Positions 1-59,068 of a stretch of DNA of 64,000 nt are shown piece after piece. Below the pieces are notes generated by a model. That model did no database searches and was not told the origin of the DNA. It saw nothing but the letters and a program-made list of their open reading frames with translations. The stretch spans positions 2,169,001 to 2,233,000 of the forward strand of contig CALZFC010000058.1 in NCBI GenBank assembly GCA_945643635.1, given 5' to 3'. How positions within the stretch are numbered: position 1 is the first letter of the stretch; the number at the start of each line of letters is the position of its first letter. This DNA comes from Allodiplogaster sudhausi (Eukaryota; Nematoda; Chromadorea; Rhabditida; Diplogasteridae). The translations under genes and the position numbers were made by a program.

Positions 1-3000
1 TTTTCTTCTCCGCATCGGCGGCAGCTTTCTTTGCCTCCTCGGCCTTCTTCTTCTCTGCCTCAGCGGCGGACTTGGCCTCCTCGGTCTTTTTCTTCTCCGC
101 ATCGGCGGCAGCTTTCTTTGCCTCCTCTACCTTCTTCTTCTCTCCCTCAGCGGCGGACTTGGCCTCCTCGGTCTTTTTCTTCTCTCCCTCAGCGGCGGAC
201 TTGGCCTCCTCGGTCTTTTTCTTCTCCGCATCGGCGGCAGCTTTCTTTGCCTCCTCGGCCTTCTTCTTCTCTCCCTCAGCGGCGGACTTGGCCTCCTCGG
301 TCTTTTTCTTCTCCGCATCGGCGGCAGCTTTCTTTGCCTCCTCGGCCTTCTTCTTCTCTGCCTCAGCGGCGGACTTGGCCTCCTCGGTCTTTTTCTTCTC
401 CGCATCGGCGGCAGCTTTCTTTGCCTCCTCGGCCTTCTTCTTCTCTGCCTCAGCGGAAGACTTGGCCTCCTCCGCCTTCTTCTTCTCTGCCTCAGCGGCG
501 GACTTGGCCTCCTCGGTCTTTTTCTTCTCCGCATCGGCGGCAGCTTTCTTTGCCTCCTCGGCCTTCTTCTTCTCTGCCTCAGCGGCGGACTTGGCCTCCT
601 CGGTCTTTTTCTTCTCCGCATCGGCGGCAGCTTTCTTTGCCTCCTCGGCCTTCTTCTTCTCTGCCTCAGCGGCGGACTTGGCCTCCTCGGTCTTTTTCTT
701 CTCCGCATCGGCGGCAGCTTTCTTTGCCTCCTCTACCTTCTTCTTCTCTCCCTCAGCGGCGGACTTGGCCTCCTCGGTCTTTTTCTTCTCTCCCTCAGCG
801 GCGGACTTGGCCTCCTCGGTCTTTTTCTTCTCCGCATCGGCGGCAGCTTTCTTTGCCTCCTCGGCCTTCTTCTTCTCTGCCTCAGCGGCGGACTTGGCCT
901 CCTCGGTTTTTTTCTTCTCCGCATCGGCGGCAGCTTTCTTTGCCTCCTCGGCCTTCTTCTTCTCTGCCTCAGCGACGGACTTGGCCTCCTCGGTCTTTTT
1001 CTTCTCCGCATCGGCGGCAGCTTTCTTTGCCTCCTCGGCCTTCTTCTTCTCTGCCTCAGCGGCGGACTTGTCCTCCACGGCCTTTTTCTTCTCCGCATCG
1101 GCGACAGCTTTCTTTGCCTCCTCGGCCTTCTTCTTCTCTGCCTCAGCGGCGGACTTGGCCTCCTCGGCCTTCTTCTTCTCTGCCTCAGCGGAAGACTTGG
1201 CCTCCTCCGCCTTCTTCTTCTCTGCCTCAGCGGCGGACTTGGCCTCCTCGGTCTTTTCTTCTCCGCATCGGCGGCAGTTTTCTTTGCCTCCTCGGCCTTC
1301 TTCTTCTCTGCCTCAGCGGCGGACTTGGCCTCCTCGGTCTTTTTCTTCTCCGCATCGGCGGCAGCTTTCTTTGCCTCCTCGCCTTCTTCTTCTCTGCCTC
1401 AGCGGCGGACTTGGCCTCCTCGGTCTTTTTCTTCTCCGCATCGGCGGCAGCTTTCTTGGCCTCCTCGGCCTTCTTCTTCTCTGCCTCAGCGGAAGACTTG
1501 GCCTCCTCCGCCTTCTTCTTCTCTGCCTCTGCGGTGGACTTGGCCTCCTCGGTCTTTTTCTTCTCCGCATCTGCGGCAGCTTTCTTTGCCTCCTCGGCCT
1601 TCTTCTTCTCTGCCTCAGCGGAAGACTTGGCCTCCTCCGCCTTCTTCTTCTCTGCCTCTGCGGCGGACTTGGCCTCCTCGGTCTTTTTCTTCTCCACATC
1701 GACGGCAGCTTTCTTTGCCTCCTCGGCCTTCTTCTTCTCTACCTCAGCGGCGGACTTGGCCTCCTCGGTCTTTTTCTTCTCCGCATCGGCGGCAGCTTTC
1801 TTTGCCTCCTCGGCCTTCTTCTTTCTGCCTCAGCGGCGGACTTGGCCTCCTCGGTCTTTTTCTTCTCCGCATCGGCGGCAGCTTTCTTTGCCTCCTCGGC
1901 CTTCTTCTTCTCTGCCTCAGCGGCGGACTTGGCCTCCTCGGTCTTTTTCTTCTCCGCATCGGCGGCAGCTTTCTTTGCCTCCTCGGCCTTCTTCTTCTCT
2001 GCCTCAGCGGCGGACTTGGCCTCCTCGGTCTTTTTCTTCTCCGCATCGGCGGCAGCTTTCTTTGCCTCCTCGGCCTTCTTCTTCTCTGCCTCAGCGGCGG
2101 ACTTGGCCTCCTCGGTCTTTTTCTTCTCCGCATCGGCGGCAGCTTTCTTTGCCTCCTCGGCCTTCTTCTTCTCTGCCTCAGCGGCGGACTTGGCCTCCTC
2201 GGTCTTTTTCTTCTCCGCATCGGCGGCAGCTTTCTTTGCCTCCTCGGCCTTCTTCTTCTCTGCCTCAGCGGAAGACTTGGCCTTCTCCGCCTTCTTCTTC
2301 TCTGCCTCAGCGGCGGACTTGGCCTCCTCGGTCTTTTTCTTCTCCGCATCGGCGGCAGCTTTCTTTGCCTCCTCGGCCTTCTTCTTCTCTGCCTCAGCGG
2401 CGGACTTGGCCTCCTCGGTCTTTTTCTTCTCCGCATCGGCGGCAGCTTTCTTTGCCTCCTCGGCCTTCTTCTTCTCTGCCTCAGCGGCGGACTTGGCCTC
2501 CTCGGTTTTTTTCTTCTCCTCATCGGCGGCAGCTTTCTTTGCCTCCTCGGCCTTCTTCTTCTCTGCCTCAGCGACGGACTTGGCCTCCTCGGTCTTTTTC
2601 TTCTCCGCATCGGCAGCAGCTTTCTTTGCCTCCTCGGCCTTCTTCTTCTCTGCCTCAGCGGCGGACTTGTCCTCCACGGCCTTTTTCTTCTCCGCATCGG
2701 CGACAGCTTTCTTTGCCTCCTCGGCCTTCTTCTTCTCTGCCTCAGCGGCGGACTTGGCCTCCTCGGCCTTCTTCTTCTCTGCCTCAGCGGAAGACTTGGC
2801 CTCCTCCGCCTTCTTCTTCTCTGCCTCTGCGGCGGACTTGGCCTCCTCGGTCTTTTTCTTCTCCACATCGGCGGCAGTTTTCTTTGCCTCCTCGGCCTTC
2901 TTCTTCTCTGCCTCAGCGGCGGACTTGGCCTCCTCGGTCTTTTTCTTCTCCGCATCGGCGGCAGCTTTCTTTGCCTCCTCCGCCTTCTTCTTCTCTGCCT

Positions 3001-6000
3001 CAGCGGCGGACTTGGCCTCCTCGGTCTTTTTCTTCTCCGCATCGGCGGCAGCTTTCTTGGCCTCCTCGGCCTTCTTCTTCTCTGCCTCAGCGGAAGACTT
3101 GGCCTCCTCCGCCTTCTTCTTCTCTGCCTCTGCGGTGGACTTGGCCTCCTCGGTCTTTTTCTTCTCCGCATCTGCGGCAGCTTTCTTTGCCTCCTCGGCC
3201 TTCTTCTTCTCTGCCTCAGCGGAAGACTTGGCCTCCTCCGCCTTCTTCTTCTCTGCCTCTGCGGCGGACTTGGCCTCCTCGGTCTTTTTCTTCTCCACAT
3301 CGACGGCAGCTTTCTTTGCCTCCTCGGCCTTCTTCTTCTCTACCTCAGCGGCGGACTTGTCCTCCTCGGTCTTTTTCTTCTCCGCATCGGCGGCAGCTTT
3401 CTTTGCCTCCTCGGCATTCTTCTTCTCTGCCTCAGCTGCGGACTTGGCCTCCTCGGTCTTTTTCTTCTCCGCATCGGCGGCAGCTTTCTTTGCCTCTTCG
3501 GCCTTCTTCTTCTCTGCCTCAGCGGCGGACTTGGCCTCTTCGGTCTTTTTCTTCTCCGCATCGGCGGCAGCTTTCTTTGCCTCCTCGGCCTTCTTCTTCT
3601 CTGCCTCAGCGGCGGACTTGGCCTCCTCGGTCTTTTTCTTCTCCGCATCGGCGGCAGCTTTCTTTGCCTCCTCGGCCTTCTTCTTCTCTGCCTCAGCGAC
3701 GGACTTGGCCTCCTCGGTCTTTTTCTTCTCCGCATCGGCGGCAGCTTTCTTTGCCTCCTCGGCCTTCTTCTTCTCTGCCTCAGCGGCGGACTTGGCCTCC
3801 TCGGTCTTTTTCTTCTTCGCATCGGCGGCAGCTTTCTTTGCCTCCTCGGCCTTCTTCTTCTCTGCCTCAGCGGAAGACTTGGCCTCCTCCGCCTTCTTCT
3901 TCTCTGCCTCAGCGGCGGACTTGGCCTCCTCGGTCTTTTTCTTCTCCGCATCGGCGGCAGCTTTCTTTGCCTCCTCGGCCTTCTTCTTCTCTGCCTCAGC
4001 GGCGGACTTGGCCTCCTCGGTCTTTTTCTTCTCCGCATCGGCGGCAGCTTTCTTTGCCTCCTCGGCCTTCTTCTTCTCTGCCTCAGCGGCGGACTTGGCC
4101 TCCTCGGTCTTTTTCTTCTCCGCATCGGCGGCAGCTTTCTTTGCCTCCTCGGCCTTCTTCTTCTCTCCCTCAGCGGCGGACTTGGCCTCCTCGGTCTTTT
4201 TCTTCTCCGCATCGGCGGCAGCTTTCTTTGCCTCCTCGGCCTTCTTCTTCTCTGCCTCAGCGGCGGACTTGGCCTCCTCGGTCTTTTTCTTCTCCGCATC
4301 GGCGGCAGCTTTCTTTGCCTCCTCGGCCTTCTTCTTCTCTCCCTCAGCGGCGGACTTGGCCTCCTCGGTCTTTTTCTTCTCCGCATCGGCGGCAGCTTTC
4401 TTTGCCTCCTCGGCCTTCTTCTTCTCTGCCTCAGCGGCGGACTTGGCCTCCTCGGTCTTTTTCTTCTCCGCATCGGCGGCAGCTTTCTTTGCCTCCTCGG
4501 CCTTCTTCTTCTCTGCCTCAGCGGCGGACTTGGCCTCCTCGGTCTTTTTCTTCTCCGCATCGGCGGCAGCTTTCTTTGCCTCCTCGGCCTTCTTCTTCTC
4601 TGCCTCAGCGGAAGACTTGGCCTCCTCCGCCTTCTTCTTCTCTGCCTCAGCGGCGGACTTGGCCTCCTCGGTCTTTTTCTTCTCCGCATCGGCGGCAGCT
4701 TTCTTTGCCTCCTCGGCCTTCTTCTTCTCTGCCTCAGCGGCGGACTTGGCCTCCTCGGTCTTTTTCTTCTCCGCATCGGCGGCAGCTTTCTTTGCCTCCT
4801 CGGCCTTCTTCTTCTCTGCCTCAGCGGCGGACTTGGCCTCCTCGGTCTTTTTCTTCTCCGCATCGGCGGCAGCTTTCTTTGCCTCCTCTACCTTCTTCTT
4901 CTCTCCCTCAGCGGCGGACTTGGCCTCCTCGGTCTTTTTCTTCTCTCCCTCAGCGGCGGACTTGGCCTCCTCGGTCTTTTTCTTCTCCGCATCGGCGGCA
5001 GCTTTCTTTGCCTCCTCGGCCTTCTTCTTCTCTCCCTCAGCGGCGGACTTGGCCTCCTCGGTCTTTTTCTTCTCCGCATCGGCGGCAGCTTTCTTTGCCT
5101 CCTCGGCCTTCTTCTTCTCTGCCTCAGCGGCGGACTTGGCCTCCTCGGTCTTTTTCTTCTCCGCATCGGCGGCAGCTTTCTTTGCCTCCTCGGCCTTCTT
5201 CTTCTCTGCCTCAGCGGAAGACTTGGCCTCCTCCGCCTTCTTCTTCTCTGCCTCAGCGGCGGACTTGGCCTCCTCGGTCTTTTTCTTCTCCGCATCGGCG
5301 GCAGCTTTCTTTGCCTCCTCGGCCTTCTTCTTCTCTGCCTCAGCGGCGGACTTGGCCTCCTCGGTCTTTTTCTTCTCCGCTTCGGCGGCAGCTTTCTTTG
5401 CCTCCTCGGCCTTCTTCTTCTCTCCCTCAGCGGCGGACTTGGCCTCCTCGGTCTTTTTCTTCTCCGCATCGGCGGCAGCTTGCTTTGCCTCCTCGGCCTT
5501 CTTCTTCTCTCCCTCAGCGGCGGACTTGGCCTCCTCGGTCTTTTTCTTCTCCGCATCGGCGGCAGCTTTCTTTGCCTCCTCGGCCTTCTTCTTCTCTCCC
5601 TCAGCGGCGGACTTGGCCTCCTCGGTCTTTTTCTTCTCCGCATCGGCGGCAGCTTTCTTTGCCTCCTCGGCCTTCTTCTTCTCTGCCTCAGCGGCGGACT
5701 TGGCCTCCTCGGTCTTTTTCTTCTCCGCATCGGCGGCAGCTTTCTTTGCCTCCTCGGCCTTCTTCTTCTCTGCCTCAGCGGCGGACTTGGCCTCCTCGGT
5801 CTTTTTCTTCTCCGCATCGGCGGCAGCTTTCTTTGCCTCCTCTACCTTCTTCTTCTCTCCCTCAGCGGCGGACTTGGCCTCCTCGGTCTTTTTCTTCTCT
5901 GCCTCAGCGGCGGACTTGGCCTCCTCGGTCTTTTTCTTCTCCGCATCGGCGGCAGCTTTCTTTGCCTCCTCGGCCTTCTTCTTCTCTGCCTCAGCGGCGG

Positions 6001-9000
6001 ACTTGGCCTCCTCGGTCTTTTTCTTCTCCGCATCGGCGGCAGCTTTCTTTGCCTCCTCGGCCTTCTTCTTCTCTGCCTCAGCGGCGGACTTGGCCTCCTC
6101 GGTCTTTTTCTTCTCCGCATCGGCGGCAGCTTTCTTTGCCTCCTCGGCCTTCTTCTTCTCTCCCTCAGCGGCGGACTTGGCCTCCTCGGTCTTTTTCTTC
6201 TCCGCATCGGCGGCAGCTTTCTTTGCCTCCTCGGCCTTCTTCTTCTCTGCCTCAGCGGCGGACTTGGCCTCCTCGGTCTTTTTCTTCTCCGCATCGGCGG
6301 CAGCTTTCTTTGCCTCCTCGGCCTTCTTCTTCTCTGCCTCAGCGGAAGACTTGGCCTCCTCCGCCTTCTTCTTCTCTGCCTCAGCGGCGGACTTGGCCTC
6401 CTCGGTCTTTTTCTTCTCCGCATCGGCGGCAGCTTTCTTTGCCTCCTCGGCCTTCTTCTTCTCTGCCTCAGCGGCGGACTTGGCCTCCTCGGTCTTTTTC
6501 TTCTCCGCATCGGCGGCAGCTTTCTTTGCCTCCTCGGCCTTCTTCTTCTCTGCCTCAGCGGCGGACTTGGCCTCCTCGGTCTTTTTCTTCTCCGCATCGG
6601 CGGCAGCTTTCTTTGCCTCCTCTACCTTCTTCTTCTCTCCCTCAGCGGCGGACTTGGCCTCCTCGGTCTTTTTCTTCTCTCCCTCAGCGGCGGACTTGGC
6701 CTCCTCGGTCTTTTTCTTCTCCGCATCGGCGGCAGCTTTCTTTGCCTCCTCGGCCTTCTTCTTCTCTCCCTCAGCGGCGGACTTGGCCTCCTCGGTCTTT
6801 TTCTTCTCCGCATCGGCGGCAGCTTTCTTTGCCTCCTCGGCCTTCTTCTTCTCTGCCTCAGCGGCGGACTTGGCCTCCTCGGTCTTTTTCTTCTCCGCAT
6901 CGGCGGCAGCTTTCTTTGCCTCCTCGGCCTTCTTCTTCTCTGCCTCAGCGGAAGACTTGGCCTCCTCCGCCTTCTTCTTCTCTGCCTCAGCGGCGGACTT
7001 GGCCTCCTCGGTCTTTTTCTTCTCCGCATCGGCGGCAGCTTTCTTTGCCTCCTCGGCCTTCTTCTTCTCTGCCTCAGCGGCGGACTTGGCCTCCTCGGTC
7101 TTTTTCTTCTCCGCTTCGGCGGCAGCTTTCTTTGCCTCCTCGGCCTTCTTCTTCTCTCCCTCAGCGGCGGACTTGGCCTCCTCGGTCTTTTTCTTCTCCG
7201 CATCGGCGGCAGCTTGCTTTGCCTCCTCGGCCTTCTTCTTCTCTCCCTCAGCGGCGGACTTGGCCTCCTCGGTCTTTTTCTTCTCCGCATCGGCGGCAGC
7301 TTTCTTTGCCTCCTCGGCCTTCTTCTTCTCTCCCTCAGCGGCGGACTTGGCCTCCTCGGTCTTTTTCTTCTCCGCATCGGCGGCAGCTTTCTTTGCCTCC
7401 TCGGCCTTCTTCTTCTCTGCCTCAGCGGCGGACTTGGCCTCCTCGGTCTTTTTCTTCTCCGCATCGGCGGCCTCGGTCTTTTCTTCTCCGCATCGGCGGC
7501 AGCTTTCTTTGCCTCCTCGGCCTTCTTCTTCTCTGCCTCAGCGGCGGACTTGGCCTCCTCGGTCTTTTTCTTCTCCGCATCGGCGGCAGCTTTCTTTGCC
7601 TCCTCTACCTTCTTCTTCTCTCCCTCAGCGGCGGACTTGGCCTCCTCGGTCTTTTTCTTCTCTCCCTCAGCGGCGGACTTGGCCTCCTCGGTCTTTTTCT
7701 TCTCCGCTTCGGCGGCAGCTTTCTTTGCCTCCTCGGCCTTCTTCTTCTCTCCCTCAGCGGCGGACTTGGCCTCCTCGGTCTTTTTCTTCTCCGCATCGGC
7801 GGCAGCTTGCTTTGCCTCCTCGGCCTTCTTCTTCTCTCCCTCAGCGGCGGACTTGGCCTCCTCGGTCTTTTTCTTCTCCGCATCGGCGGCAGCTTTCTTT
7901 GCCTCCTCGGCCTTCTTCTTCTCTCCCTCAGCGGCGGACTTGGCCTCCTCGGTCTTTTTCTTCTCCGCATCGGCGGCAGCTTTCTTTGCCTCCTCGGCCT
8001 TCTTCTTCTCTGCCTCAGCGGCGGACTTGGCCTCCTCGGTCTTTTTCTTCTCCGCATCGGCGGCCTCGGTCTTTTTCTTCTCCGCATCGGCGGCAGCTTT
8101 CTTTGCCTCCTCGGCCTTCTTCTTCTCTGCCTCAGCGGCGGACTTGGCCTCCTCGGTCTTTTTCTTCTCCGCATCGGCGGCAGCTTTCTTTGCCTCCTCT
8201 ACCTTCTTCTTCTCTCCCTCAGCGGCGGACTTGGCCTCCTCGGTCTTTTTCTTCTCTCCCTCAGCGGCGGACTTGGCCTCCTCGGTCTTTTTCTTCTCCG
8301 CATCGGCGGCAGCTTTCTTTGCCTCCTCGGCCTTCTTCTTCTCTCCCTCAGCGGCGGACTTGGCCTCCTCGGTCTTTTTCTTCTCCGCATCGGCGGCAGC
8401 TTTCTTTGCCTCCTCGGCCTTCTTCTTCTCTGCCTCAGCGGCGGACTTGGCCTCCTCGGTCTTTTTCTTCTCCGCATCGGCGGCAGCTTTCTTTGCCTCC
8501 TCGGCCTTCTTCTTCTCTCCCTCAGCGGCGGACTTGGCCTCCTCGGTCTTTTTCTTCTCCGCATCGGCGGCAGCTTTCTTTGCCTCCTCGGCCTTCTTCT
8601 TCTCTGCCTCAGCGGCGGACTTGGCCTCCTCGGTCTTTTTCTTCTCCGCATCGGCGGCAGCTTTCTTTGCCTCCTCGGCCTTCTTCTTCTCTGCCTCAGC
8701 GGAAGACTTGGCCTCCTCCGCCTTCTTCTTCTCTCCCTCAGGGGCGGACTTGGCCTCCTCGGTCTTTTTCTTCTCCGCATCGGCGGCAGCTTTCTTTGCC
8801 TCCTCGGCCTTCTTCTTCTCTCCCTCAGCGGCGGACTTGGCCTCCTCGGTCTTTTTCTTCTCCGCATCGGCGGCAGCTTTCTTTGCCTCCTCGGCCTTCT
8901 TCTTCTCTGCCTCAGCGGCGGACTTGGCCTCCTCGGTCTTTTTCTTCTCCGCATCGGCGGCCTCGGTCTTTTTCTTCTCCGCATCGGCGGCAGCTTTCTT

Positions 9001-12000
9001 TGCCTCCTCGGCCTTCTTCTTCTCTGCCTCAGCGGCGGACTTGGCCTCCTCGGTCTTTTTCTTCTCCGCATCGGCGGCAGCTTTCTTTGCCTCCTCTACC
9101 TTCTTCTTCTCTCCCTCAGCGGCGGACTTGGCCTCCTCGGTCTTTTTCTTCTCTCCCTCAGCGGCGGACTTGGCCTCCTCGGTCTTTTTCTTCTCCGCTT
9201 CGGCGGCAGCTTTCTTTGCCTCCTCGGCCTTCTTCTTCTCTCCCTCAGCGGCGGACTTGGCCTCCTCGGTCTTTTTCTTCTCCGCATCGGCGGCAGCTTG
9301 CTTTGCCTCCTCGGCCTTCTTCTTCTCTCCCTCAGCGGCGGACTTGGCCTCCTCGGTCTTTTTCTTCTCCGCATCGGCGGCAGCTTTCTTTGCCTCCTCG
9401 GCCTTCTTCTTCTCTCCCTCAGCGGCGGACTTGGCCTCCTCGGTCTTTTTCTTCTCCGCATCGGCGGCAGCTTTCTTTGCCTCCTCGGCCTTCTTCTTCT
9501 CTGCCTCAGCGGCGGACTTGGCCTCCTCGGTCTTTTTCTTCTCCGCATCGGCGGCCTCGGTCTTTTTCTTCTCCGCATCGGCGGCAGCTTTCTTTGCCTC
9601 CTCGGCCTTCTTCTTCTCTGCCTCAGCGGCGGACTTGGCCTCCTCGGTCTTTTTCTTCTCCGCATCGGCGGCCTCGGTCTTTTTCTTCTCCGCATCGGCG
9701 GCAGCTTTCTTTGCCTCCTCGGCCTTCTTCTTCTCTGCCTCAGCGGCGGACTTGGCCTCCTCGGTCTTTTTCTTCTCCGCATCGGCGGCAGCTTTCTTTG
9801 CCTCCTCTACCTTCTTCTTCTCTCCCTCAGCGGCGGACTTGGCCTCCTCGGTCTTTTTCTTCTCTCCCTCAGCGGCGGACTTGGCCTCCTCGGTCTTTTT
9901 CTTCTCCGCATCGGCGGCAGCTTTCTTTGCCTCCTCGGCCTTCTTCTTCTCTCCCTCAGCGGCGGACTTGGCCTCCTCGGTCTTTTTCTTCTCCGCATCG
10001 GCGGCAGCTTTCTTTGCCTCCTCGGCCTTCTTCTTCTCTGCCTCAGCGGCGGACTTGGCCTCCTCGGTCTTTTTCTTCTCTCCCTCAGCGGCGGACTTGG
10101 CCTCCTCGGTCTTTTTCTTCTCCGCATCGGCGGCAGCTTTCTTTGCCTCCTCGGCCTTCTTCTTCTCTGCCTCAGCGGCGGACTTGGCCTCCTCGGTCTT
10201 TTTCTTCTCCGCATCGGCGGCAGCTTTCTTTGCCTCCTCTACCTTCTTCTTCTCTCCCTCAGCGGCGGACTTGGCCTCCTCGGTCTTTTTCTTCTCTCCC
10301 TCAGCGGCGGACTTGGCCTCCTCGGTCTTTTTCTTCTCCGCTTCGGCGGCAGCTTTCTTTGCCTCCTCGGCCTTCTTCTTCTCTCCCTCAGCGGCGGACT
10401 TGGCCTCCTCGGTCTTTTTCTTCTCCGCATCGGCGGCAGCTTGCTTTGCCTCCTCGGCCTTCTTCTTCTCTCCCTCAGCGGCGGACTTGGCCTCCTCGGT
10501 CTTTTTCTTCTCCGCATCGGCGGCAGCTTTCTTTGCCTCCTCGGCCTTCTTCTTCTCTCCCTCAGCGGCGGACTTGGCCTCCTCGGTCTTTTTCTTCTCC
10601 GCATCGGCGGCAGCTTTCTTTGCCTCCTCGGCCTTCTTCTTCTCTGCCTCAGCGGCGGACTTGGCCTCCTCGGTCTTTTTCTTCTCCGCATCGGCGGCCT
10701 CGGTCTTTTTCTTCTCCGCATCGGCGGCAGCTTTCTTTGCCTCCTCGGCCTTCTTCTTCTCTGCCTCAGCGGCGGACTTGGCCTCCTCGGTCTTTTTCTT
10801 CTCCGCATCGGCGGCCTCGGTCTTTTTCTTCTCCGCATCGGCGGCAGCTTTCTTTGCCTCCTCGGCCTTCTTCTTCTCTGCCTCAGCGGCGGACTTGGCC
10901 TCCTCGGTCTTTTTCTTCTCCGCATCGGCGGCAGCTTTCTTTGCCTCCTCTACCTTCTTCTTCTCTCCCTCAGCGGCGGACTTGGCCTCCTCGGTCTTTT
11001 TCTTCTCTCCCTCAGCGGCGGACTTGGCCTCCTCGGTCTTTTTCTTCTCCGCATCGGCGGCAGCTTTCTTTGCCTCCTCGGCCTTCTTCTTCTCTCCCTC
11101 AGCGGCGGACTTGGCCTCCTCGGTCTTTTTCTTCTCCGCATCGGCGGCAGCTTTCTTTGCCTCCTCGGCCTTCTTCTTCTCTGCCTCAGCGGCGGACTTG
11201 GCCTCCTCGGTCTTTTTCTTCTCTCCCTCAGCGGCGGACTTGGCCTCCTCGGTCTTTTTCTTCTCCGCATCGGCGGCAGCTTTCTTTGCCTCCTCGGCCT
11301 TCTTCTTCTCTCCCTCAGCGGCGGACTTGGCCTCCTCGGTCTTTTTCTTCTCCGCATCGGCGGCAGCTTTCTTTGCCTCCTCGGCCTTCTTCTTCTCTGC
11401 CTCAGCGGCGGACTTGGCCTCCTCGGTCTTTTTCTTCTCCGCATCGGCGGCAGCTTTCTTTGCCTCCTCGGCCTTCTTCTTCTCTCCCTCAGCGGCGGAC
11501 TTGGCCTCCTCGGTCTTTTTCTTCTCCGCATCGGCGGCAGCTTTCTTTGCCTCCTCGGCCTTCTTCTTCTCTGCCTCAGCGGCGGACTTGGCCTCCTCGG
11601 TCTTTTTCTTCTCCGCATCGGCGGCAGCTTTCTTTGCCTCCTCGGCCTTCTTCTTCTCTGCCTCAGCGGAAGACTTGGCCTCCTCCGCCTTCTTCTTCTC
11701 TCCCTCAGGGGCGGACTTGGCCTCCTCGGTCTTTTTCTTCTCCGCATCGGCGGCAGCTTTCTTTGCCTCCTCGGCCTTCTTCTTCTCTGCCTCAGCAGCG
11801 GACTTGGCCTCCTCGGTCTTTTTCTTCTCCGCATCGGCGGCAGCTTTCTTTGCCTCCTCGGCCTTCTTCTTCTCTGCCTCAGCGGAAGACTTGGCCTCCT
11901 CCGCCTTCTTCTTCTCTCCCTCAGGGGCGGACTTGGCCTCCTCGGTCTTTTTCTTCTCCGCATCGGCGGCAGCTTTCTTTGCCTCCTCGGCCTTCTTCTT

Positions 12001-29700: not shown

Positions 29701-32700
29701 TGTTCAACCAACTTAATCTCGACAGGCTTGTCATCGACCTGCTTTGCCTCCTCGACTGGTGCTTCTGGCTTCTTTTCGACGGTTTCATCAGCCAGCTCGG
29801 TTTTCTTCTCCTGTTCAGCCTTCTTGAGCTCGTCAGGCTTGTCATCGACCTGCTTTGCCTCCTCGACTGGTGCTGCTGGCTTCTTTTCGAAGGTCTCTTC
29901 AGCCAACTCGGGTTTCTTCTCCTGCTCAACCTGCTTGAGCTCGACAGGCTTGTCATCGACCTGCTTTGCCTCCTCGACTGGTGCTTCTGGCTTCTTTTCG
30001 ACGGTCTCTTCAGCCAACTCGTGTTTCTTCTCCTGCTCAACCTGCTTGAGCTCCACAGGCTTGTCATCGACCTGCTTTGCCTCCTCGACTGGTGCTTCTG
30101 GCTTCTTTTCGACGGTCTCTTCAGCCAACTCGGGTTTCTTCTCCTGCTCAACCTGCTTGAGCTCGACAGGCTTGTCATCGACCTGCTTTGCCCCCTCCAC
30201 TGGTGATTCCTGTTTCTCTTCTTCATTTCTTGCTGGTGCCGATTCCTCAGGTTTCCCTGGCGCCTGTCGAATCTTCTTCAAGTCGAATCCAGTAAATTCG
30301 TAACTGTCAACAAGTACTTCGACTTCAATTGATGAGAACAGATGGGGTTTGCTGAAAAGAAGATCTACTTCAGCGTCAGTCTTTCCAATTTTCTCCGCGA
30401 CCGACACTTCTTCTTCTTGCATCAACTTCTCATCTGTCACAATCTCGGGGGTTTCTTGAACCTGCTCAGGTTTTATTGCCTGTTCTATCGGCAGACTCTC
30501 GTCAGGACCGACTTGTTCTACCTCCTCGACTGGTGCTGCTGGCTTCTTTTCGACGGTTTCTTCAGCCAGCTCGTTTTTCTTCTCCTGTTCAACCTGCTTG
30601 AGCTCGGCAGGCTTGTCATCGACCTGCTTTGCCCCCTCGACTGGTGCTTCTGGCTTCTTTTCGACGGTTTCATCAGCCAGCTCGGTTTTCTCCTCCTGTT
30701 CAACCTGCTTGAGCTCGACAGGCTTGTCATCGACCTGCTTTGCCTCCTCGACTGGTGCTTCTATCTTCTTTTTAACGGTCTCTTCAGCCAGCTCGGGTTT
30801 CTTCTCCTGTTCAACCAACTTAATCTCGACAGGCTTGTCATCGACCTGCTTTGCCTCCTCGACTGGTGCTTCTGGCTTCTTTTCGACGGTCTCTTCAGCC
30901 AACTCGGGTTTCTTCTCCTGCTCAACCTGCTTGAGCTCGACAGGCTTGTCATCGACCTGCTTTGCCCCCTCCACTGGTGATTCCTGTTTCTCTTCTTCAT
31001 TTCTTGCTGGTGCCGATTCCTCAGGTTTCCCTGGCGCCTGTCGAATCTTCTTCAAGTCGAATCCAGTAAATTCGTAACTGTCAACAAGTACTTCGACTTC
31101 AATTGATGAGAACAGATGGGGTTTGCTGAAAAGAAGATCTACTTCAGCGTCAGTCTTTCCAATTTTCTCCGCGACCGACACTTCTTCTTCTTGCATCAAC
31201 TTCTCATCTGTCACAATCTCGGGGGTTTCTTGAACCTGCTCAGGTTTTATTGCCTGTTCTATCGGCAGACTCTCGTCAGGACCGACTTGTTCTACCTCCT
31301 CGACTGGTGCTGCTGGCTTCTTTTCGACGGTTTCTTCAGCCAGCTCGTTTTTCTTCTCCTGTTCAACCTGCTTGAGCTCGGCAGGCTTGTCATCGACCTG
31401 CTTTGCCCCCTCGACTGGTGCTTCTGGCTTCTTTTCGACGGTTTCATCAGCCAGCTCGGTTTTCTCCTCCTGTTCAACCTGCTTGAGCTCGACAGGCTTG
31501 TCATCGACCTGCTTTGCCTCCTCGACTGGTGCTTCTATCTTCTTTTTAACGGTCTCTTCAGCCAGCTCGGGTTTCTTCTCCTGTTCAACCAACTTAATCT
31601 CGACAGGCTTGTCATCGACCTGCTTTGCCTCCTCGACTGGTGCTTCTGGCTTCTTTTCGACGGTTTCATCAGCCAGCTCGGTTTTCTTCTCCTGTTCAGC
31701 CTTCTTGAGCTCGTCAGGCTTGTCATCGACCTGCTTTGCCTCCTCGACTGGTGCTGCTGGCTTCTTTTCGAAGGTCTCTTCAGCCAACTCGGGTTTCTTC
31801 TCCTGCTCAACCTGCTTGAGCTCGACAGGCTTGTCATCGACCTGCTTTGCCTCCTCGACTGGTGCTTCTGGCTTCTTTTCGACGGTTTCTTCAGCCAGCT
31901 CGGTTTTCTTCTCCTGTTCAGCCTTCTTGAGCTCGTCAGGCTTGTCATCGACCTGCTTTGCCTCCTCGACTGGTGCTGCTGGCTTCTTTTCGAAGGTCTC
32001 TTCAGCCAACTCGGGTTTCTTCTCCTGCTCAACCTGCTTGAGCTCGACAGGCTTGTCATCGACCTGCTTTGCCTCCTCGACTGGTGCTTCTGGCTTCTTT
32101 TCGACGGTCTCTTCAGCCAACTCGTGTTTCTTCTCCTGCTCAACCTGCTTGAGCTCCACAGGCTTGTCATCGACCTGCTTTGCCTCCTCGACTGGTGCTT
32201 CTGGCTTCTTTTCGACGGTCTCTTCAGCCAACTCGGGTTTCTTCTCCTGCTCAACCTGCTTGAGCTCGACAGGCTTGTCATCGACCTGCTTTGCCCCCTC
32301 CACTGGTGATTCCTGTTTCTCTTCTTCATTTCTTGCTGGTGCCGATTCCTCAGGTTTCCCTGGCGCCTGTCGAATCTTCTTCAAGTCGAATCCAGTAAAT
32401 TCGTAACTGTCAACAAGTACTTCGACTTCAATTGATGAGAACAGATGGGGTTTGCTGAAAAGAAGATCTACTTCAGCGTCAGTCTTTCCAATTTTCTCCG
32501 CGACCGACACTTCTTCTTCTTGCATCAACTTCTCATCTGTCACAATCTCGGGGGTTTCTTGAACCTGCTCAGGTTTTATTGCCTGTTCTATCGGCAGACT
32601 CTCGTCAGGACCGACTTGTTCTACCTCCTCGACTGGTGCTGCTGGCTTCTTTTCGACGGTTTCTTCAGCCAGCTCGTTTTTCTTCTCCTGTTCAACCTGC

Positions 32701-35700
32701 TTGAGCTCGGCAGGCTTGTCATCGACCTGCTTTGCCCCCTCGACTGGTGCTTCTGGCTTCTTTTCGACGGTTTCATCAGCCAGCTCGGTTTTCTTCTCCT
32801 GTTCAACCTGCTTGAGCTCGGCAGGCTTGTCATCGACCTGCTTTGCCTCCTCGACTGGAGCTTCTATCTTCTTTTCAACGGTCTCTTCAGCCAGCTCAGT
32901 TTTCTTCTCCTGTTCAACCAACTTAATCTCGACAGGCTTGTCATCGACCTGCTTTGCCTCCTCGACTGGTGCTTCTGGCTTCTTTTCGACGGTTTCATCA
33001 GCCAGCTCGGTTTTCTTCTCCTGTTCAACCTGCTTGAGCTCGGCAGGCTTGTCATCGACCTGCTTTGCCTCCTCGACTGGTGCTTCTATCTTCTTTTCGA
33101 CGGTCTCTTCAGCCAGCTCGGTTTTCTTCTCCTGTTCAACCTTCTTGAGCTCGTCAGGCTTGTCATCGACCTGCTTTGCCTCCTCGACTGGTGCTTCTGG
33201 CTTCTTTTCGACGGTCTCTTCAGCCAACTCGGGTTTCTTCTCCTGTTCAACCTGCTTGAGCTCGACAGGCTTGTCATCGACCTGCTTTGCCTCCTCGACT
33301 GGTGCTTCTGGCTTCTTTTCGACGGTCTCTTCAGCCAAGTCGGGTTTCTTCTCCTGTTCAACCTGCTTGAGCTCGACAGGCTTGTCATCGACTTGTTTTG
33401 CCTCCTCCACTGGTGATTCCTGTTTCTCTTCTTCATTTCTTGCTGGTGCCGATTCCTCAGGTTTCCCTGGCGCCTGTCGTATCTTCTTCAAGTCGAATCC
33501 AGTAAATTCGTAACTGTCAACAAGTACTTCGACTTCAATTGATGAGAACAGATGGGGTTTGCTGAAAAGAAGATCTACTTCAGCGTCAGTCTTTCCAATT
33601 TTCTCCGCGACCGACACTTCTTCTTCTTGCATCAACTTCTCATCTGTCACAATCTCGGTAGTTTCTTGAACCTGCTCAGGTTTTATTGCCTGTTCTATCG
33701 GCAGACGCTCGTCAGGACCGACTTGTTCTACCTCCTCGACTGGTGCTTCTGGCTTCTTTTCGACGGTTTCATCTGCCAGCTCGGTTTTCTTCTCCTGTTC
33801 AACCTGCTTGAGCTCGACAGGCTTGTCATCGACCTGCTTTGCCTCCTCGACTGGTGCTTCTATCTTCTTTTCGACGGTCTCTTCAGCCAGCTCGGTTTTC
33901 TTCTCCTGTTCAACCTGCTTGAGCTCGGCAGGCTTGTCATCGACCTGCTTTGCCTCCTCGACTGGTGCTTCTATCTTCTTTTCAACGGTCTCTTCAGCCA
34001 GCTCAGTTTTCTTCTCCTGTTCAACCAACTTAATCTCGACAGGCTTGTCATCGACCTGCTTTGCCTCCTCGACTGGTGCTTCTGGCTTCTTTTCGACGGT
34101 CTCTTCAGCCAACTCGGGTTTCTTCTCCTGCTCAACCTGTTTGAGCTCGACAGGCTTGTCATCGAATTGCTTTGCCTCCTCGACTGGTGCTTCTGGCTTC
34201 TTTTCGACGGTCTCTTCAGCCAACTCGGGTTTCTTCTCCTGCTCAACCTGCTTGAGCTCGACAGGCTTGTCATCGACCTGCTTTGCCCCCTCCACTGGTG
34301 ATTCCTGTTTCTCTTCTTCATTTCTTGCTGGTGCCGATTCCTCAGGTTTCCCTGGCGCCTGTCGAATCTTCTTCAAGTCGAATCCAGTAAATTCGTAACT
34401 GTCAACAAGTACTTCGACTTCAATTGATGAGAACAGATGGGGTTTGCTGAAAAGAAGATCTACTTCAGCGTCAGTCTTTCCAATTTTCTCCGCGACCGAC
34501 ACTTCTTCTTCTTGCATCAACTTCTCATCTGTCACAATCTCGGTAGTTTCTTGAACCTGCTCAGGTTTTATTGCCTGTTCTATCGGCAGACGCTCGTCAG
34601 GACCGACTTGTTCTACCTCCTCGACTGGTGCTTCTGGCTTCTTTTTGACGGTCTCTTCAGCCAGCTCGGTTTTCTTCTCTTCTTCAACCTGCTTGAGCTC
34701 GACAGGCTTGTCATCGACCTGCTTTGCCTCCTCGACTGGTGCTTCTGGCTTCTTTTCGACGGTCTCTTCAGCCAACTCGGGTTTCTTCTCCTGTTCAACC
34801 TGCTTGAGCTCGACAGGCTTGTCATCGAATTGCTTTGCCTCCTCGACTGGTGCTTCTGGCTTCTTTTCGACGGTCTCTTCAGCCAACTCGGGTTTCTTCT
34901 CCTGTTCAACCTGCTTGAGCTCGACAGGCTTGTCATCGACCTGCTTTGCCTCCTCGACTGGTGCTTCTGGCTTCTTTTCGACGATCTCTTCAGCCAACTC
35001 GGGTTTCTTCTCCTGTTCAACCTGCTTGAGCTCGACAGGCTTGTCATCGACCTGCTTTGCCTCCTCGACTGGTGCTTCTGGCTTCTTTTCGACGGTCTCT
35101 TCAGCCAACTCGGGTTTCTTCTCCTGTTCAACCTGCTTGAGCTCGACAGGCTTGTCATCGACCTGTTTTGCCTCCTCCACTGGTGATTCCTGTTTCTCTT
35201 CTTCATTTCTTGCTGGAGCCGATTCCTCAGGTTTCCCTGGCGCCTGTCGAATCTTCTTCAAGTCGAATCCAGTAAATTCGTAACTGTCAACAAGTACTTC
35301 GACTTCAATTGATGAGAACAGATGGGGTTTGCTGAAAAGAAGATCTACTTCAGCGTCAGTCTTTCCAATTTTCTCCGCGACCGACACTTCTTCTTCTTGC
35401 ATCAACTTCTCATCTGTCACAATCTCGGGGGTTTCTTGAACCTGCTCAGGTTTTATTGCCTGTTCTATCGGCAGACTCTCGTCAGGACCGAGTTGTTCTA
35501 CCTCCTCGACTGGTGCTTCTGGCTTCTTTTCGACGGTTTCATCTGCCAGCTCGGTTTTCTTCTCCTGTTCAACCTGCTTGAGCTCGACAGGCTTGTCATC
35601 GACCTGCTTTGCCTCCTCGACTGGTGCTTCTATCTTCTTTTCGACGGTCTCTTCAGCCAGCTCGGTTTTCTTCTCCTGTTCAACCAACTTGATCTCGACA

Positions 35701-38700
35701 GGCTTGTCATCAACCTGCTTTGCCTCCTCGACTGGTGCTTCTGGCTTCTTTTCGACGGTCTCTTCAGCCAACTCGGGTTTCTTCTCCTGTTCAACCTGCT
35801 TGAGCTCGACAGGCTTGTCATCGAATTGCTTTGCCTCCTCGACTGGTGCTTCTGGCTTCTTTTCGACGGTCTCTTCAGCCAACTCGGGTTTCTTCTCCTG
35901 TTCAACCTGCTTGAGCTCGACAGGCTTGTCATCGACCTGCTTTGCCTCCTCGACTGGTGCTTCTGGCTTCTTTTCGACGATCTCTTCAGCCAACTCGGGT
36001 TTCTTCTCCTGTTCAACCTGCTTGAGCTCGACAGGCTTGTCATCGACCTGCTTTGCCTCCTCGACTGGTGCTTCTGGCTTCTTTTCGACGGTCTCTTCAG
36101 CCAACTCGGGTTTCTTCTCCTGTTCAACCTGCTTGAGCTCGACAGGCTTGTCATCGACCTGTTTTGCCTCCTCCACTGGTGATTCCTGTTTCTCTTCTTC
36201 ATTTCTTGCTGGAGCCGATTCCTCAGGTTTCCCTGGCGCCTGTCGAATCTTCTTCAAGTCGAATCCAGTAAATTCGTAACTGTCAACAAGTACTTCGACT
36301 TCAATTGATGAGAACAGATGGGGTTTGCTGAAAAGAAGATCTACTTCAGCGTCAGTCTTTCCAATTTTCTCCGCGACCGACACTTCTTCTTCTTGCATCA
36401 ACTTCTCATCTGTCACAATCTCGGGGGTTTCTTGAACCTGCTCAGGTTTTATTGCCTGTTCTATCGGCAGACTCTCGTCAGGACCGAGTTGTTCTACCTC
36501 CTCGACTGGTGCTTCTGGCTTCTTTTCGACGGTTTCATCTGCCAGCTCGGTTTTCTTCTCCTGTTCAACCTGCTTGAGCTCGACAGGCTTGTCATCGACC
36601 TGCTTTGCCTCCTCGACTGGTGCTTCTATCTTCTTTTCGACGGTCTCTTCAGCCAGCTCGGTTTTCTTCTCCTGTTCAACCAACTTGATCTCGACAGGCT
36701 TGTCATCAACCTGCTTTGCCTCCTCGACTGGTGCTTCTGGCTTCTTTTCGTCGGTTTCATCAGCCAGCTCGGTTTTCTTCTCCTCTTCAACCTGCTTGAG
36801 CTCGACAGGCTTGTCATCGACCTGCTTTGCCTCCTCGACTGGTGCTTCTGGCTTCTTTTTGACGGTCTCTTCAGCCAGCTCGGTTTTCTTCTCTTGTTCA
36901 ACCTGCTTGAGCTCGACAGGCTTGTCATCGACCTGCTTTGCCTCCTCGACTGGTGCTTCTGGCTTCTTTTCGACGGTCTCTTCAGCCAACTCGGGTTTCT
37001 TCTCCTGTTCAACCTGCTTGAGCTCGACAGGCTTGTCATCGACCTGCTTTGCCTCCTCGACTGGTGCTTCTGGCTTCTTTTCGACGGTCTCTTCAGCCAA
37101 CTCGGGTTTCTTCTCCTGTTCAACCTGCTTGAGCTCGACAGGCTTGTCATCGACCTGCTTTGCCTCCTCGACTGGTGCTTCTGGCTTCTTTTCGACGATC
37201 TCTTCAGCCAACTCGGGTTTCTTCTCCTGTTCAACCTGCTTGAGCTCGACAGGCTTGTCATCGACCTGCTTTGCCTCCTCGACTGGTGCTTCTGGCTTCT
37301 TTTCGACGGTCTCTTCAGCCAACTCGGGTTTCTTCTCCTGTTCAACCTGCTTGAGCTCGACAGGCTTGTCATCGACCTGTTTTGCCTCCTCCACTGGTGA
37401 TTCCTGTTTCTCTTCTTCATTTCTTGCTGGAGCCGATTCCTCAGGTTTCCCTGGCGCCTGTCGAATCTTCTTCAAGTCGAATCCAGTAAATTCGTAACTG
37501 TCAACAAGTACTTCGACTTCAATTGATGAGAACAGATGGGGTTTGCTGAAAAGAAGATCTACTTCAGCCTCAGTCTTTCCAATTTTCTCCGCTACCGACA
37601 CTTCTTCTTCTTGCATCAACTTCTCATCAGTCGCTATCTCGGGGGTTTCTTGAACCTGCTCAGGTTTTATTGCCTGTTCTGTCGGCAGACTCTCGACAGG
37701 CTTGTCACCCACTTGTTCTACCTCCTCGACTGGTGCTTCTGTCTTCTTCTCGAAGGTCTCTTCAGACAGCACGGTTTTCTTCTCTTGTTCAACCTGCTTG
37801 AGCTCGACAGGCTTGTCGTCGACCTGCTTTGCCTCCTCGACTGGTGCTTCTGGCTTCTTTTCGACGGTCTCTTCTGCCAACTCGGGTTTCTTCTCCTGTT
37901 CAACCTGCTTGAGCTCGACAGGCTTGTCATCGACCTGCTTTGCCTCCGCGACTGGTGCTTCTGGCTTCTTTTCGACGGTCTCTTCAGCCAACTCGGGTTT
38001 CTTCTCCTGTTCAACCTGCTTGAGCTCGACAGGCTTGTCATCGACCTGTTTTGCCTCCTCCACTGGTGATTCCTGTTTCTCTTCTTCATTTCTTGCTGGT
38101 GCCGATTCCTCAGGTTTCCCTGGCGCCTGTCGAATCTTCTTCAAGTCGAATCCAGTAAATTCGTAACTGTCAACAAGTACTTCGACTTCAATTGATGAGA
38201 ACAGATGGGGTTTGCTGAAAAGAAGATCTACTTCAGCCTCAGTCTTTCCAATTTTATCCGCGACCGACACTTCTTCTTCTTGCATCAACTTCTCATCTGT
38301 CACAATCTCGGGGGTTTCTTGAACCTGCTCAGGTTTTATTGCCTGTTCTATCGGCAGACTCTCGACAGGCTTGTCATCGACCTGCTTTGCCTCCTCGACT
38401 ATTGCTTCTGGCGTCTTTTCGACGGTCTCTTCAGCCAACTCGGGTTTCTTCTCCTGCTCAACCTGCTTGAGCTCGACAGGCTTGTCACCGACTTGTTCTA
38501 CCTCCTCGACTGGTGCTTCTGGCTTCTTCTCGACGGTCTCTTCAGCCAACTCGGGTTTCTTCTCCTGTTCAACCTGCTTGAGCTCGTCAGGCTTGTCATC
38601 GACCTGCTTTGCCTCCTCGACTGGTGCTTCTGTCTTCTTCTCGAAGGTCTCTTCAAACAGCACGGTTTTCTTCTCTTGTTCAACCTGCTTGAGCTCGACA

Positions 38701-41700
38701 GGCTTGTCGTCGACCTGCTTTGCCTCCTCGACTGGTGCTTCTGGCTTCTTTTCGACGGTCTCTTCAGCCAACTCGGGTTTCTTCTCCTGTTCAACCTGCT
38801 TGAGCTCGACAGGCTTGTCATCGACCTGCTTTGCCTCCTCGACTGGTGCTTCTAGCTTATTTTCGACGGTCTCTTCAGCCAGCTCGGTTTCCTTCTCCTG
38901 TTCAACCAACTTGATCTCGACAGGCTTGTCATCAACCTGCTTTGCCTCCTCGACTGGTGCTTCTGGCTTCTTTTCGACGGTTTCATCAGCCAGCTCGGTT
39001 TTCTTCTCCTGTTCAACCTGCTTGAGCTCGACAGGCTTGTCATCGACCTGCTTTGCCTCCTCGACTGGTGCTTCTGGCTTCTTTTCGACGGTCTCTTCAG
39101 CCAGCTCGGTTTTCTTCTTCTGTTCAACAAACTTGATCTCGACAGGCTTGTCATCAACCTGCTTTGCCTCCTCGACTGGTGCTTCTGGCTTCTTTTCGAC
39201 GGTTTCATCAGCCAGCTCGGTTTTCTTCTCCTGTTCAACCTGCTTGAGCTCGACAGGCTTGTCATCGACCTGCTTTGCCTCCTCGACTGGTGCTTCTGGC
39301 TTCTTTTCGACGGTCTCTTCAGCCAACTCGGTTTTCTTCTCCTGTTCAACCTGCATGAGCTCGACTGCCTTGTCATCGACCTGCTTTGCCTCCTCGACTG
39401 GTGATTCCTGTTTCTCTTCTTCATTTCTTGCTGGTGCCGATTCCTCAGGTTTCCCTGGCGCCTGTCGAATCTTCTTCAAGTCGAATCCAGTAAATTCGTA
39501 ACTGTCAACAAGTACTTCGACTTCAATTGATGAGAACAGATGGGGTTTGCTGAAAAGAAGATCTACTTCAGCCTCAGTCCTTCCAATTTTCTCGGCGACC
39601 GAAACTTCTTCTTCTTGCATCAACTTCTCATCAGTCGCTATCTCGGGTGTTTCTTGAACCTGCTCAGGTTTTATTGCCTGTTCTGTCTTCAGACTCTCGA
39701 CAGGCCTGTCATCGACTTGTTCTACCTCCTCGACTGGTGCTTCCGGCTTCTTTTTGACGGTCTCTTCAGCCAGCTCGTTTTTCTTCTCCTGTTCAACCTG
39801 CATGAGCTCGACAGGCTTGTCACCGACTTGTTCTACCTCCTCGACTGATGCTTCTGGCTTTTCATCCGCCAGCTGTAGTGCATCGAGTGTTCGTTCAGTT
39901 TTCCATTCGGAGGTATCCTAAAAATGGCAGGGTGTCAAATACATCATTTTGGCAAACTTCGCATATTTCGTACATGAGCGCATTGTTATCAAGAGTCCAT
40001 ACCGTTGGCAGAAACAGGGATGTTGCATCTTGTCCTCTGCAGTCAACATCAATCTCTAGTTCTGCGTTAACGAGTTCCTTCTCACAAAGTACATGCATGT
40101 CGATTTGAACGTATGCTAGGTCGTCATCTGCAACGATAATAGCTCTGCTTGCAATCGCAGAATGATTGTTTTTTGTTTCATAAGAATTCAAATTTCGTGT
40201 CGTTGACTTTTGACGGACCTTCCACAATCAGTCGGCAGGCTGTTGAAGCAGATCCAAAAGCGTTGGCTGCTGTGCACTGAAAGACTGCATTGTCGTGCTG
40301 CGCCGACACACAATCAATCTTTAGCCATGATATTCCATCCTCTGAGACAACCGAGAACCGCCTGAATAACGAGAAATTCAAAACTGTTCAGTATATCAAT
40401 TCTTTAGGCTGCATTCTACGAATCATTTCGATATTGTGCTCTAAAAAAGTCGCTATGCATGAATTTTGAGAAATGTTAAATATATTTGCCAAAAAGTTTA
40501 ATTTATATGTAGTATATCCATACATTTGGCTAAGCTGTTGAAATATGCCTGAAAGAAAACTGCATTACACAATCTTCAATTTTCTTCATTGTCACCATAG
40601 AGAACAGTAAGACACACCATCGGGGGAAGTTTTTAAATGCAGTAAATAACAAAAATATACGTACTCATGAAGTGGAACGAGATGGTCGTCCCTCTCCCAA
40701 GTGACAACGGGAAGAGGCTGTCCAACAAACTTACATTTCAGAACAACACTGTCAGCGACCTGAAGAATGTTAAGAATAAGTTAATATTCTGTGTTGTTCC
40801 TCCAAAATGGCCGAAATGTTTCAATTAGAGTTCTCGAATTAGTTAGAAGCTATTCACTTTGTAAAGCAGAAGAAATTCCACATACTGGACAACTATAATA
40901 CATACATATGTACATATAGCATTCCAAGTCGGAAATTTTGGCGGAAGTTGATTGTAAGCCTCTGCATCAATAGTTCACTACGAATCATATTGCGGTGTTC
41001 GTTTGATGTAAAGGTAACCTTGACAAAGAGTTGCGGAGGGAGTTGTGTTATGAAGTGCGGCCGCTGTCCTGCTGCAGAAGACAAGCTCGAATCGGAGCAG
41101 ATGCTCACATCCACCTGAATATAGATAGCATTACGTACATAGGAGTCTCGTTTTCAATGATATCAAGTTCCTAATTGTAAGCCATGGATTGCGTTCATAA
41201 GTCGGCTTTGCTCTTCATTTAAATATACCCATTCGAGATCCATATTTATGCCGTTCGAACGAAACACTCACTCTCTATCCAGCTTCTTACTTTTTTAAAT
41301 ATAGACTTCTGTAGGTGAATTAAACAATAATATTCCTCTTTCAATTAATGGTGTTAAAGAAAAATGACCGAATCAACTGAAGAGCGACGTGAGTGGCGAG
41401 CGTAATGAGAAAGAAGAGAGGAACACGCGTAGTCATAATCGCCCCTTCTAGACATTACGGAGCCCTCTCCATCTGCCTGTGCCTGCACCGCTTCCAATTC
41501 CAGCTCAAGACCGCACTCGGCAACTCAAATACTCCGCCATAAACTCTGAGGTGCCTATTCAGGACAATTAAATTTTAAAAAAGATACTGACTTTGCTTTC
41601 ATTCCGTTTGTGCAGCTATTCAGCATACCACATATCTTTTAGGTATGTACATATATCGTTAACGTATTTCTTCTATGTAACAAAGCAAAGTGAACGAAAA

Positions 41701-54300: not shown

Positions 54301-54571
54301 GATCCTCGGTGCTTGCCTCTGACAACTGCCGACGGTGCTTAAATGAGGGCTAACTCTTATTTAAAGAAGGGCATTTTAGGACGGCTATATACTACCTTTA
54401 TCCAACGAGTTTCATTCTTGGAATGAAGACTTGGAAAGATGAGTTGTTTCACGGCTAAATCAGCGTCTTCCTGGACAGTGCTGTCGTATTCAATCACTAA
54501 TTCTTGATGAGCTACGTCGCCGGTCCGAACCAATGAGACGGTCACATTAGACATCTTAAAGTGCATAGATA

Positions 54572-54635
<64 letters not shown>

Positions 54636-58368: not shown

Positions 58369-58656
58369 CTGAATGTTAAACTAATTTCAATACAAATTTA
58401 CATAGACATGTATGTATGTATGTACAAACGAATTAATGAATAATTTAATGTTACTTTCAAAATACAGTACCGCTCAACAACCAGGGGTGCAGGAACTTTC
58501 GGAACTTTCGGAAAGTTCCAAAATGTCCGATCAAATTTGTGCGTTTCTCGATAACCGCACCTCGATTTGGTTTGCATATTTGGATTCAGGCACTCGGGTT
58601 ACACCATAATTGAGCATTAAAATGTCAAGATAATGCATTTTCGACAAAATGGAAAA
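58369..58656. other. Intronic or flanking AT-rich DNA with a solitary mariner-like terminus
   Basis: Upstream of the first visible exon of the minus-strand gene. At 58463-58479 TA is followed by CAGTACCGCTCAACAA, which closely matches the ends of the two TA-flanked elements. No matching inverted end is seen in the window. Three 9-bp GGAACTTTC-type units follow. No coding signal. Confidence 0.45.
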
Positions 58657-59027: not shown

Positions 59028-59068
59028 GAATCCTGGAGCGCCAAGTCAGAGACACAGCTGTTCCAGCA

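What the first reader, a model, noticed from the sequence alone, without database searches (positions are those of the whole stretch)
1..39917. One apparently uninterrupted exon of at least 39.9 kb
From the acceptor at 39917 to the left edge I see no plausible intron. The minus frame is continuous apart from five single-base losses. That would be more than 13,000 codons in one exon, far beyond the roughly 17-kb exon known in human titin. If real, it is among the longest exons anywhere and poses questions for transcription and splicing.
Basis: partly seen in the sequence, partly recalled or inferred. Interest (0 to 1): 0.75.

Follow-up and report, generated by a model that had tools for sequence, protein, structure and literature searches.

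The report
Giant repeat exon of nematode titin
The sequence holds the elastic, repeat-filled part of a roundworm titin gene, which reads as one coding stretch of at least 39.9 kb; it is very long, but of the same kind as the large repeat arrays already described in the titin gene of C. elegans.

Summary
On the minus strand one frame runs from a splice acceptor at 39917 to the window's left edge with no stop and exactly five single-base losses: 13,302 codons. It encodes a PEVK-like array (8,380 aa: 37-aa units around 23 copies of a 110/112-aa module) and an Ala/Glu/Lys array (at least 4,922 aa). The gene is most likely a nematode titin (TTN-1 type): upstream exons match Ig-rich proteins of Pristionchus, Cooperia and Angiostrongylus. 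An open frame proves little in a tandem array (three plus-strand frames are open there too), but the module varies mainly at silent positions on both sides of its internal TTTTCAG, and no stop arose where about 49 and 10 were expected. No strong donor precedes a strong acceptor inside the array; a 4.9-kb exon of the same gene has 90 such pairs. Caveats: 23 strong acceptors, weak frame-keeping donors, four strong donors at the array junction, no RNA, no reads. C. elegans ttn-1 has repeat arrays of 14.9 and 19.2 kb with similar single-base indels (PMC6210790). Verdict: a real, very large exon, a new member of a known kind.

The parts
1..39917 (-). Giant coding exon, 5' end at 39917, open at the window's left edge; 13,302 codons with five single-base losses
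14770..39917 (-). PEVK-like part, 8,380 aa: 155 units of 37 aa, 8 of 110 aa, 14 of 112 aa and 1 of 32 aa were cut out by pattern; the rest lies at ends and at the first loss
   Evidence: P+E+V+K make up 0.607 of residues; junction read
1..14780 (-). Ala/Glu/Lys array, at least 4,922 aa, alternating 14- and 15-aa units (29 aa, 87 bp), helix-like periodicity of 3.61 residues
16777..39549 (-). 23 copies of TTCTTTTCAG|C, one in each module, phase 2; first exon base would be 39549, 38214 ... 17334, 16777
   Evidence: 22 in-frame copies listed with spacings of 669-1,779 bases, all multiples of 3
14207..15063 (-). The four donors scoring 6 or more in the array (15063, 14639, 14510, 14207), around the junction of the two arrays, 3' of all 23 strong acceptors
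39918..40002 (-). Inferred 85-base intron before the giant exon, ACG|GTATGG ... CATTTTTAG|GAT, phase 0 on both sides
   Evidence: no homologue covers it
40003..42349 (-). Inferred exons with half Ig domains (about 42.35-42.13, 40.36-40.22 kb scanned) and a short exon at 40127-40003
47324..58369 (-). Upstream exons of the same strand matching nematode Ig-rich proteins; ends in a conserved ...SLH stop

Best explanation
This is the elastic region of a nematode titin gene (TTN-1 type). Shown by sequence: one reading frame of at least 39.9 kb, built of tandem copies of a 111-bp PEVK-like unit, a 330/336-bp module and an 87-bp Ala/Glu/Lys unit, with change among copies biased to silent sites. Inferred: it is kept in mRNA as one exon, joined by the 85-base intron at 40002-39918 to Ig exons; the PEVK-like part is a disordered spring (about 2.9 um contour at 0.35 nm per residue) and the Ala/Glu/Lys part a long charged helical rod (at least 0.7 um). 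Such an exon can grow by slippage and unequal exchange because the units hardly make splice sites: hardly any good donor, and no good acceptor but the one in the module. The five losses are most likely consensus errors in a repeat that short reads cannot correct.
For: Frame. Silent bias and no nonsense changes: (module 52 silent against 31 replacement, pN/pS 0.20, 22 of 23 copies; 37-aa units 212 against 316, 0.49, n = 155). Both sides of the module's TTTTCAG are constrained (0.24 and 0.03). Module spacings all multiples of 3 (21 of 21). No ordered strong splice pair in 39.9 kb, against 90 within 2 kb in a 4.9-kb exon of the same gene. Gene identity. Precedent with the same design and the same kind of indel: C. 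elegans ttn-1 (PMC6210790).
Against: No RNA and no reads. 37-aa units look almost neutral when each variant is counted once (0.89), and the 14-aa units are at 0.87 when all changes are counted. Donors of 5 or more make 23 pairs with the strong acceptors within 2 kb, 21 of them keeping frame. Three relatives end at a stop at 47324, so the join between the Ig part and the array is not shown by homology. No homologue of the array was found. If the loss at 16874 were real, the frame would end at 16868.
Confidence: 0.77

Rival explanations
1. The array is coding but spliced in some or all mRNAs: the module's TTCTTTTCAG is used with weak in-repeat donors (AA|GTTGGTTGA, also phase 2), or the strong donors at 15063-14207 skip the helical array to an acceptor outside the window.
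For: 23 acceptors scoring 7.2, above the 19 sites picked (2.1-6.8); ten AAGTTGGTT donors; 21 of 23 close pairs keep frame; C. elegans ttn-1 makes at least six isoforms (PMC2851571, passage).
Against: No strong donor lies 5' of a strong acceptor. The sequence on both sides of the TTTTCAG is constrained as protein. The donor at 40002 is phase 0, the acceptors phase 2. A coding origin of TTTTCAG from Leu-Phe-Ser has a chance of about 0.035 for one ancestral module, and the copies are not independent.
Confidence: 0.13
2. The frame losses are real: translation ends at 16868 and the rest is a decaying array; the coding exon is then about 23 kb.
For: The losses stand in the assembly; the first is followed by a stop within a few codons.
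Against: After each loss the frame stays open to the next one, no stop arises in the 14- and 15-aa units (8.7 expected), two of the five losses shorten a run of A, and C. [quoted passage not shown]
Confidence: 0.05
3. Length artefact: the assembly has expanded or collapsed the arrays, so that the true exon is much shorter or longer.
For: Exact internal repeats of up to 1,309 bp. Satellites over 20 kb disagreed between long-read assemblies of C. elegans.
Against: 36,997 of 38,917 positions carry a 1,001-mer seen once, so reads of several kb can order the copies; in C. elegans both long-read assemblies agreed on the ttn-1 arrays.
Confidence: 0.15
4. Non-coding satellite with an accidental open frame.
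For: Plus-strand frames are open as well.
Against: Silent-biased change and missing nonsense changes in one frame; five frame breaks in 404 units cut out by pattern; design shared with C. elegans ttn-1.
Confidence: 0.02

Closest known systems
C. elegans ttn-1 (W06H8.8), satellite region
   Same: Titin gene of a nematode; large coding tandem arrays side by side (117-bp and 24-bp units, 14,926 and 19,240 bp), single-base indels between assemblies (PMC6210790, Results section read); circles of DNA map to a coding exon for an elastic domain (PMC5633380, passages).
   Different: Other unit lengths (111, 330/336 and 87 bp here). Whether the worm arrays lie in one exon is not stated in what I read.
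Ig-rich proteins of Pristionchus mayeri and P. entomophagus, Cooperia, Angiostrongylus
   Same: 36-45% identity to the upstream exons, same order, the three longest matches sharing the ...SLH end.
   Different: These records hold no part of the array.
Drosophila sls PEVK exons
   Same: Spring of an invertebrate titin coded in large exons (PMC12063666, passages).
   Different: sls exon 32 codes for about 1,700 aa, against at least 13,302 here, and is spliced out in flight muscle.
Human TTN 17-kb exon and MUC16 exon (recalled)
   Same: Very long internal coding exons.
   Different: TTN's codes for A-band Ig/Fn3 domains, MUC16's for mucin repeats; both shorter than this one.

Membership tests
Nematode TTN-1 (titin) | Several Ig (I-set) domains in the N-terminal part | tested here: met
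   I-set in 6 of 7 pieces scanned, 3 of them above Pfam's cut-off (the seventh was the array module), and in P0004. Four PDB chains named titin match the 42.3-kb piece with whole-chain E from 8.4e-14 to 2.4e-05, none by a single stretch on its own.
Nematode TTN-1 (titin) | Homology to other nematode members along the N-terminal part | tested here: met
   the records bear names such as hypothetical protein or Ig I-set protein, none is named titin.
Nematode TTN-1 (titin) | PEVK-type spring followed by a charged helical array, as in C. elegans | tested here: met
   Composition and units; design as in PMC6210790, where the repeat units are given by length only, so sequence likeness was not tested.
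Nematode TTN-1 (titin) | Fn3 domains and protein kinase at the C-terminal end | not testable with these tools
   Lies left of the window; the own-genome search did not complete.
Single exon | No ordered strong splice pair inside | tested here: met
   0 pairs with donor 6 or more and acceptor 5 or more; 1 pair, not frame-keeping, at acceptor 4 or more; 23 pairs within 2 kb at donor 5 or more.
Single exon | Contiguity in mRNA | not testable with these tools
   No RNA data.

The most novel reading that the evidence does not exclude
The exon is the longest uninterrupted coding exon known in an animal, and it is a length-selectable spring: every module carries the same strong phase-2 acceptor, and strong donors sit only at the junction of the two arrays, so splicing could trim the spring by whole modules, or drop the helical rod, while keeping frame.
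Probability: 0.08. Interest if true: 0.7.

Novelty: new member of a known kind. Interest (0 to 1): 0.42.

Why it matters
Long-read assemblies reveal coding exons of tens of kilobases that older assemblies cut short. An exon of about 40 kb or more tests how exon recognition, transcription and translation cope with a purine-rich repeat, and shows how a spring protein can change length by whole in-frame units. It also warns that gene predictors will break such genes at single-base consensus errors.

Tried and rejected
Array homologues: two searches found none (P0001 residues 70-330, 1,425 candidates; the module, 24 candidates, E up to 1). The search's length limits and low complexity may hide them. 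Module structure: mean pLDDT 56, pTM 0.22 (11 of the 22 in-frame copies given), too poor for a fold search, so none was run. PDB hits of the module to antibody heavy chains (best E 0.00066) rest on a short likeness and were taken as chance. Rfam: 0 matches in the window at gathering scores. Pfam: none for the module nor for P0002; P0001 was not scanned (too long). Record exons: the searches (443 papers, 40 listed; 57 papers, 15 listed) gave no catalogue of longest exons among the listings seen; 'longest known' is therefore not established. PKZILLA genes of Prymnesium (recalled as very long with few introns) may hold longer exons outside animals; one search found no paper with 'PKZILLA' and 'exon', two with 'PKZILLA', which were not read. 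Passages of PMC9825244, PMC2612030, PMC9886281 and PMC11378355 gave no exon length to compare.

Limits of my own tests: the splice scores use a home-made weight table on a recalled nematode consensus; the 13 introns fitted to homologues include weak placements (donors 3.0-8.8, acceptors 1.5-6.7), so the cut-offs 6 and 5 are judgements. In one search, 62 codons of the 37-aa units with several changes were left out of the silent/replacement counts, the module at the first loss fell out (22 of 23 kept), and one 32-aa PEVK unit and 11 Ala/Glu/Lys units of 10, 28 or 29 aa were not analysed. Copies are related, so counts are not independent events.
Full report
What was claimed and what is there. A stop-to-stop listing gives minus frames 39917..16866 (7,683 aa), 16890..6622 (3,422 aa) and 7537..1739 (1,932 aa). 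A path-finding script over 39917..1 that may shift frame at a cost needs exactly five shifts, all losses of one base (near 16874, 7482, 1825, 1382, 1257), and meets no stop. The translation has 13,302 codons: 8,380 of PEVK-like repeat and 4,922 of Ala/Glu/Lys repeat. Tandem Repeats Finder sees the array from base 1, so the exon's end lies outside the window. The acceptor reads CATTTTTAG|GAT, and its own TAG is the in-frame stop that opens the frame. A donor ACG|GTATGG at 40002 is in phase 0, as is the start of the giant exon, with 85 bases between.

Why an open frame is not enough. In a tandem array a unit without stops makes any length open: from the left edge all three plus-strand frames are open too, for 14.2, 16.3 and 16.7 kb. 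I therefore tested constraint among copies. For the 80-aa common part of the module (22 of 23 copies) single changes against the consensus were 52 silent and 31 replacement, pN/pS 0.20; stops expected at the silent rate 10.4, observed 0. For 155 37-aa units: 212 silent, 316 replacement, 0.49; stops expected 48.9, observed 0. Counting each variant once, the ratios are 0.20 for the module but 0.89 for the 37-aa unit (stops expected 2.0 and 5.5). Helical units: 15-aa units 0.38 (0.28 once each, n = 94), 14-aa units 0.87 (0.33 once each, n = 121); stops expected 2.3 and 6.4, observed 0. The module is clearly constrained as protein; the spring and helix units are weakly so. The 22 in-frame modules follow each other at 669-1,779 bases, all 21 distances multiples of 3.

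Is there an intron inside? With a simple score from the nematode splice consensus (recalled), the array holds 4 donors of 6 or more among 1,445 GT and 23 acceptors of 5 or more among 6,568 AG; the 18 kb from 58000 to 40000 hold 71 of 887 and 86 of 1,449. The 23 acceptors are one site, TTCTTTTCAG|C, inside each module, in phase 2; the four strong donors lie at 15063, 14639, 14510 and 14207, after all 23 acceptors. So no strong donor precedes a strong acceptor in the array at any distance, whereas one 4.9-kb coding exon of the same gene (52694-47764) has 90 such pairs within 2 kb and 159 at any distance. Results against this reading: donors of 5 or more make 23 pairs with the acceptors within 2 kb, and 21 of these keep frame, because ten AAGTTGGTT sites are in phase 2 too. 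Against constitutive use, both sides of the TTTTCAG are constrained as protein (0.24 and 0.03). Facultative use stays open, and the junction donors could skip the helical array to an acceptor outside the window.

What gene it is. The 1,773-aa frame at 52895-47574 finds five nematode records: Pristionchus mayeri (two; 45% and 40% identity), Cooperia oncophora (37%), Angiostrongylus costaricensis (36%) and P. entomophagus (38%). Mapped back, they cover 58.4-47.3 kb on the minus strand in order, with a few extra cross-matches between Ig domains, among them one at 42.3-42.1 kb. Ig half-domains go on to 40.2 kb: I-set is found in 6 of 7 pieces scanned, 3 above Pfam's cut-off, and the 42.3-kb piece matches four PDB chains, all named titin. 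The species is probably a rhabditid nematode, by identity nearer to Pristionchus (Neodiplogasteridae) than to Cooperia or Angiostrongylus; it was not identified further. The three longest matches end at one conserved ...SLH stop at 47324, so a short isoform or a separate transcript probably exists, and the join of Ig part and array is inferred from position, strand and phase.

Precedent. In C. elegans ttn-1 the region holds three satellites; the 24-bp one measures 19,240 bp and the 117-bp one 14,926 bp in the nanopore assembly, against 4,465 and 6,979 in the reference; [quoted passage not shown] the predicted protein rises to 26,136 aa if all exons are expressed (PMC6210790, Results section read). 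A circular-DNA study maps abundant circles to a coding exon of ttn-1 for an elastic domain (PMC5633380, passages). A small-RNA study finds sense and antisense siRNAs from a core of the W06H8.8 transcript and suggests converging transcripts (PMC2851571, passages). The present locus repeats that design with other units at similar or greater length.

Assembly. The longest exact internal repeat is 1,309 bp; 36,997 of 38,917 positions carry a 1,001-mer seen once, but only 1,879 of 39,897 a 21-mer seen once. Long reads can order the copies; short reads can hardly correct them. That fits five uncorrected losses, two of which shorten a run of A. Taking them as errors is inference.

How it most likely works (inferred). 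A disordered spring of 8,380 aa has a contour of about 2.9 um at 0.35 nm per residue (that figure from PMC12063666, passage). The helical part shows a periodicity of 3.61 residues in the 1,885-aa piece tested and would be a rod of at least 0.7 um at 0.15 nm per residue (recalled). The module is predicted without a stable fold, with short helices at best (mean pLDDT 56); it may be a binding segment.

Verdict. It is not a new kind of thing: the worm orthologue has arrays of the same design and order of size. 'Among the longest exons anywhere' is plausible for animals but not established.

Noticed in passing
59030-63085 +: BEL/Pao-type retroelement: DUF1759 (gag-like) frame, then a frame with reverse transcriptase and Pao peptidase A17, parted by one in-frame stop.
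   Followed up: partly
47324-47713 -: Alternative end of the Ig part: a ...SLH stop shared with P. mayeri, Cooperia and Angiostrongylus records, upstream of further Ig exons.
   Followed up: partly
42566-43384: Minisatellite of 23-25 bp (96-bp higher period) that reads on the minus strand as Arg/Glu-rich repeat in overlapping open frames; probably intronic, coding status not tested.
   Followed up: no
1-16729 +: All three plus-strand frames are open for 14.2-16.7 kb, a by-product of unit composition; in C. elegans the orthologous transcript yields antisense siRNAs.
   Followed up: no
16777-39549 -: 23 identical strong 3' splice sites within coding sequence, scoring above the 19 sites picked; why splicing should ignore them is not explained.
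   Followed up: partly
17133-39677 -: The module resembles antibody heavy chains over a short YEFTGF...RQAPGK stretch (best E 0.00066); taken as chance.
   Followed up: no
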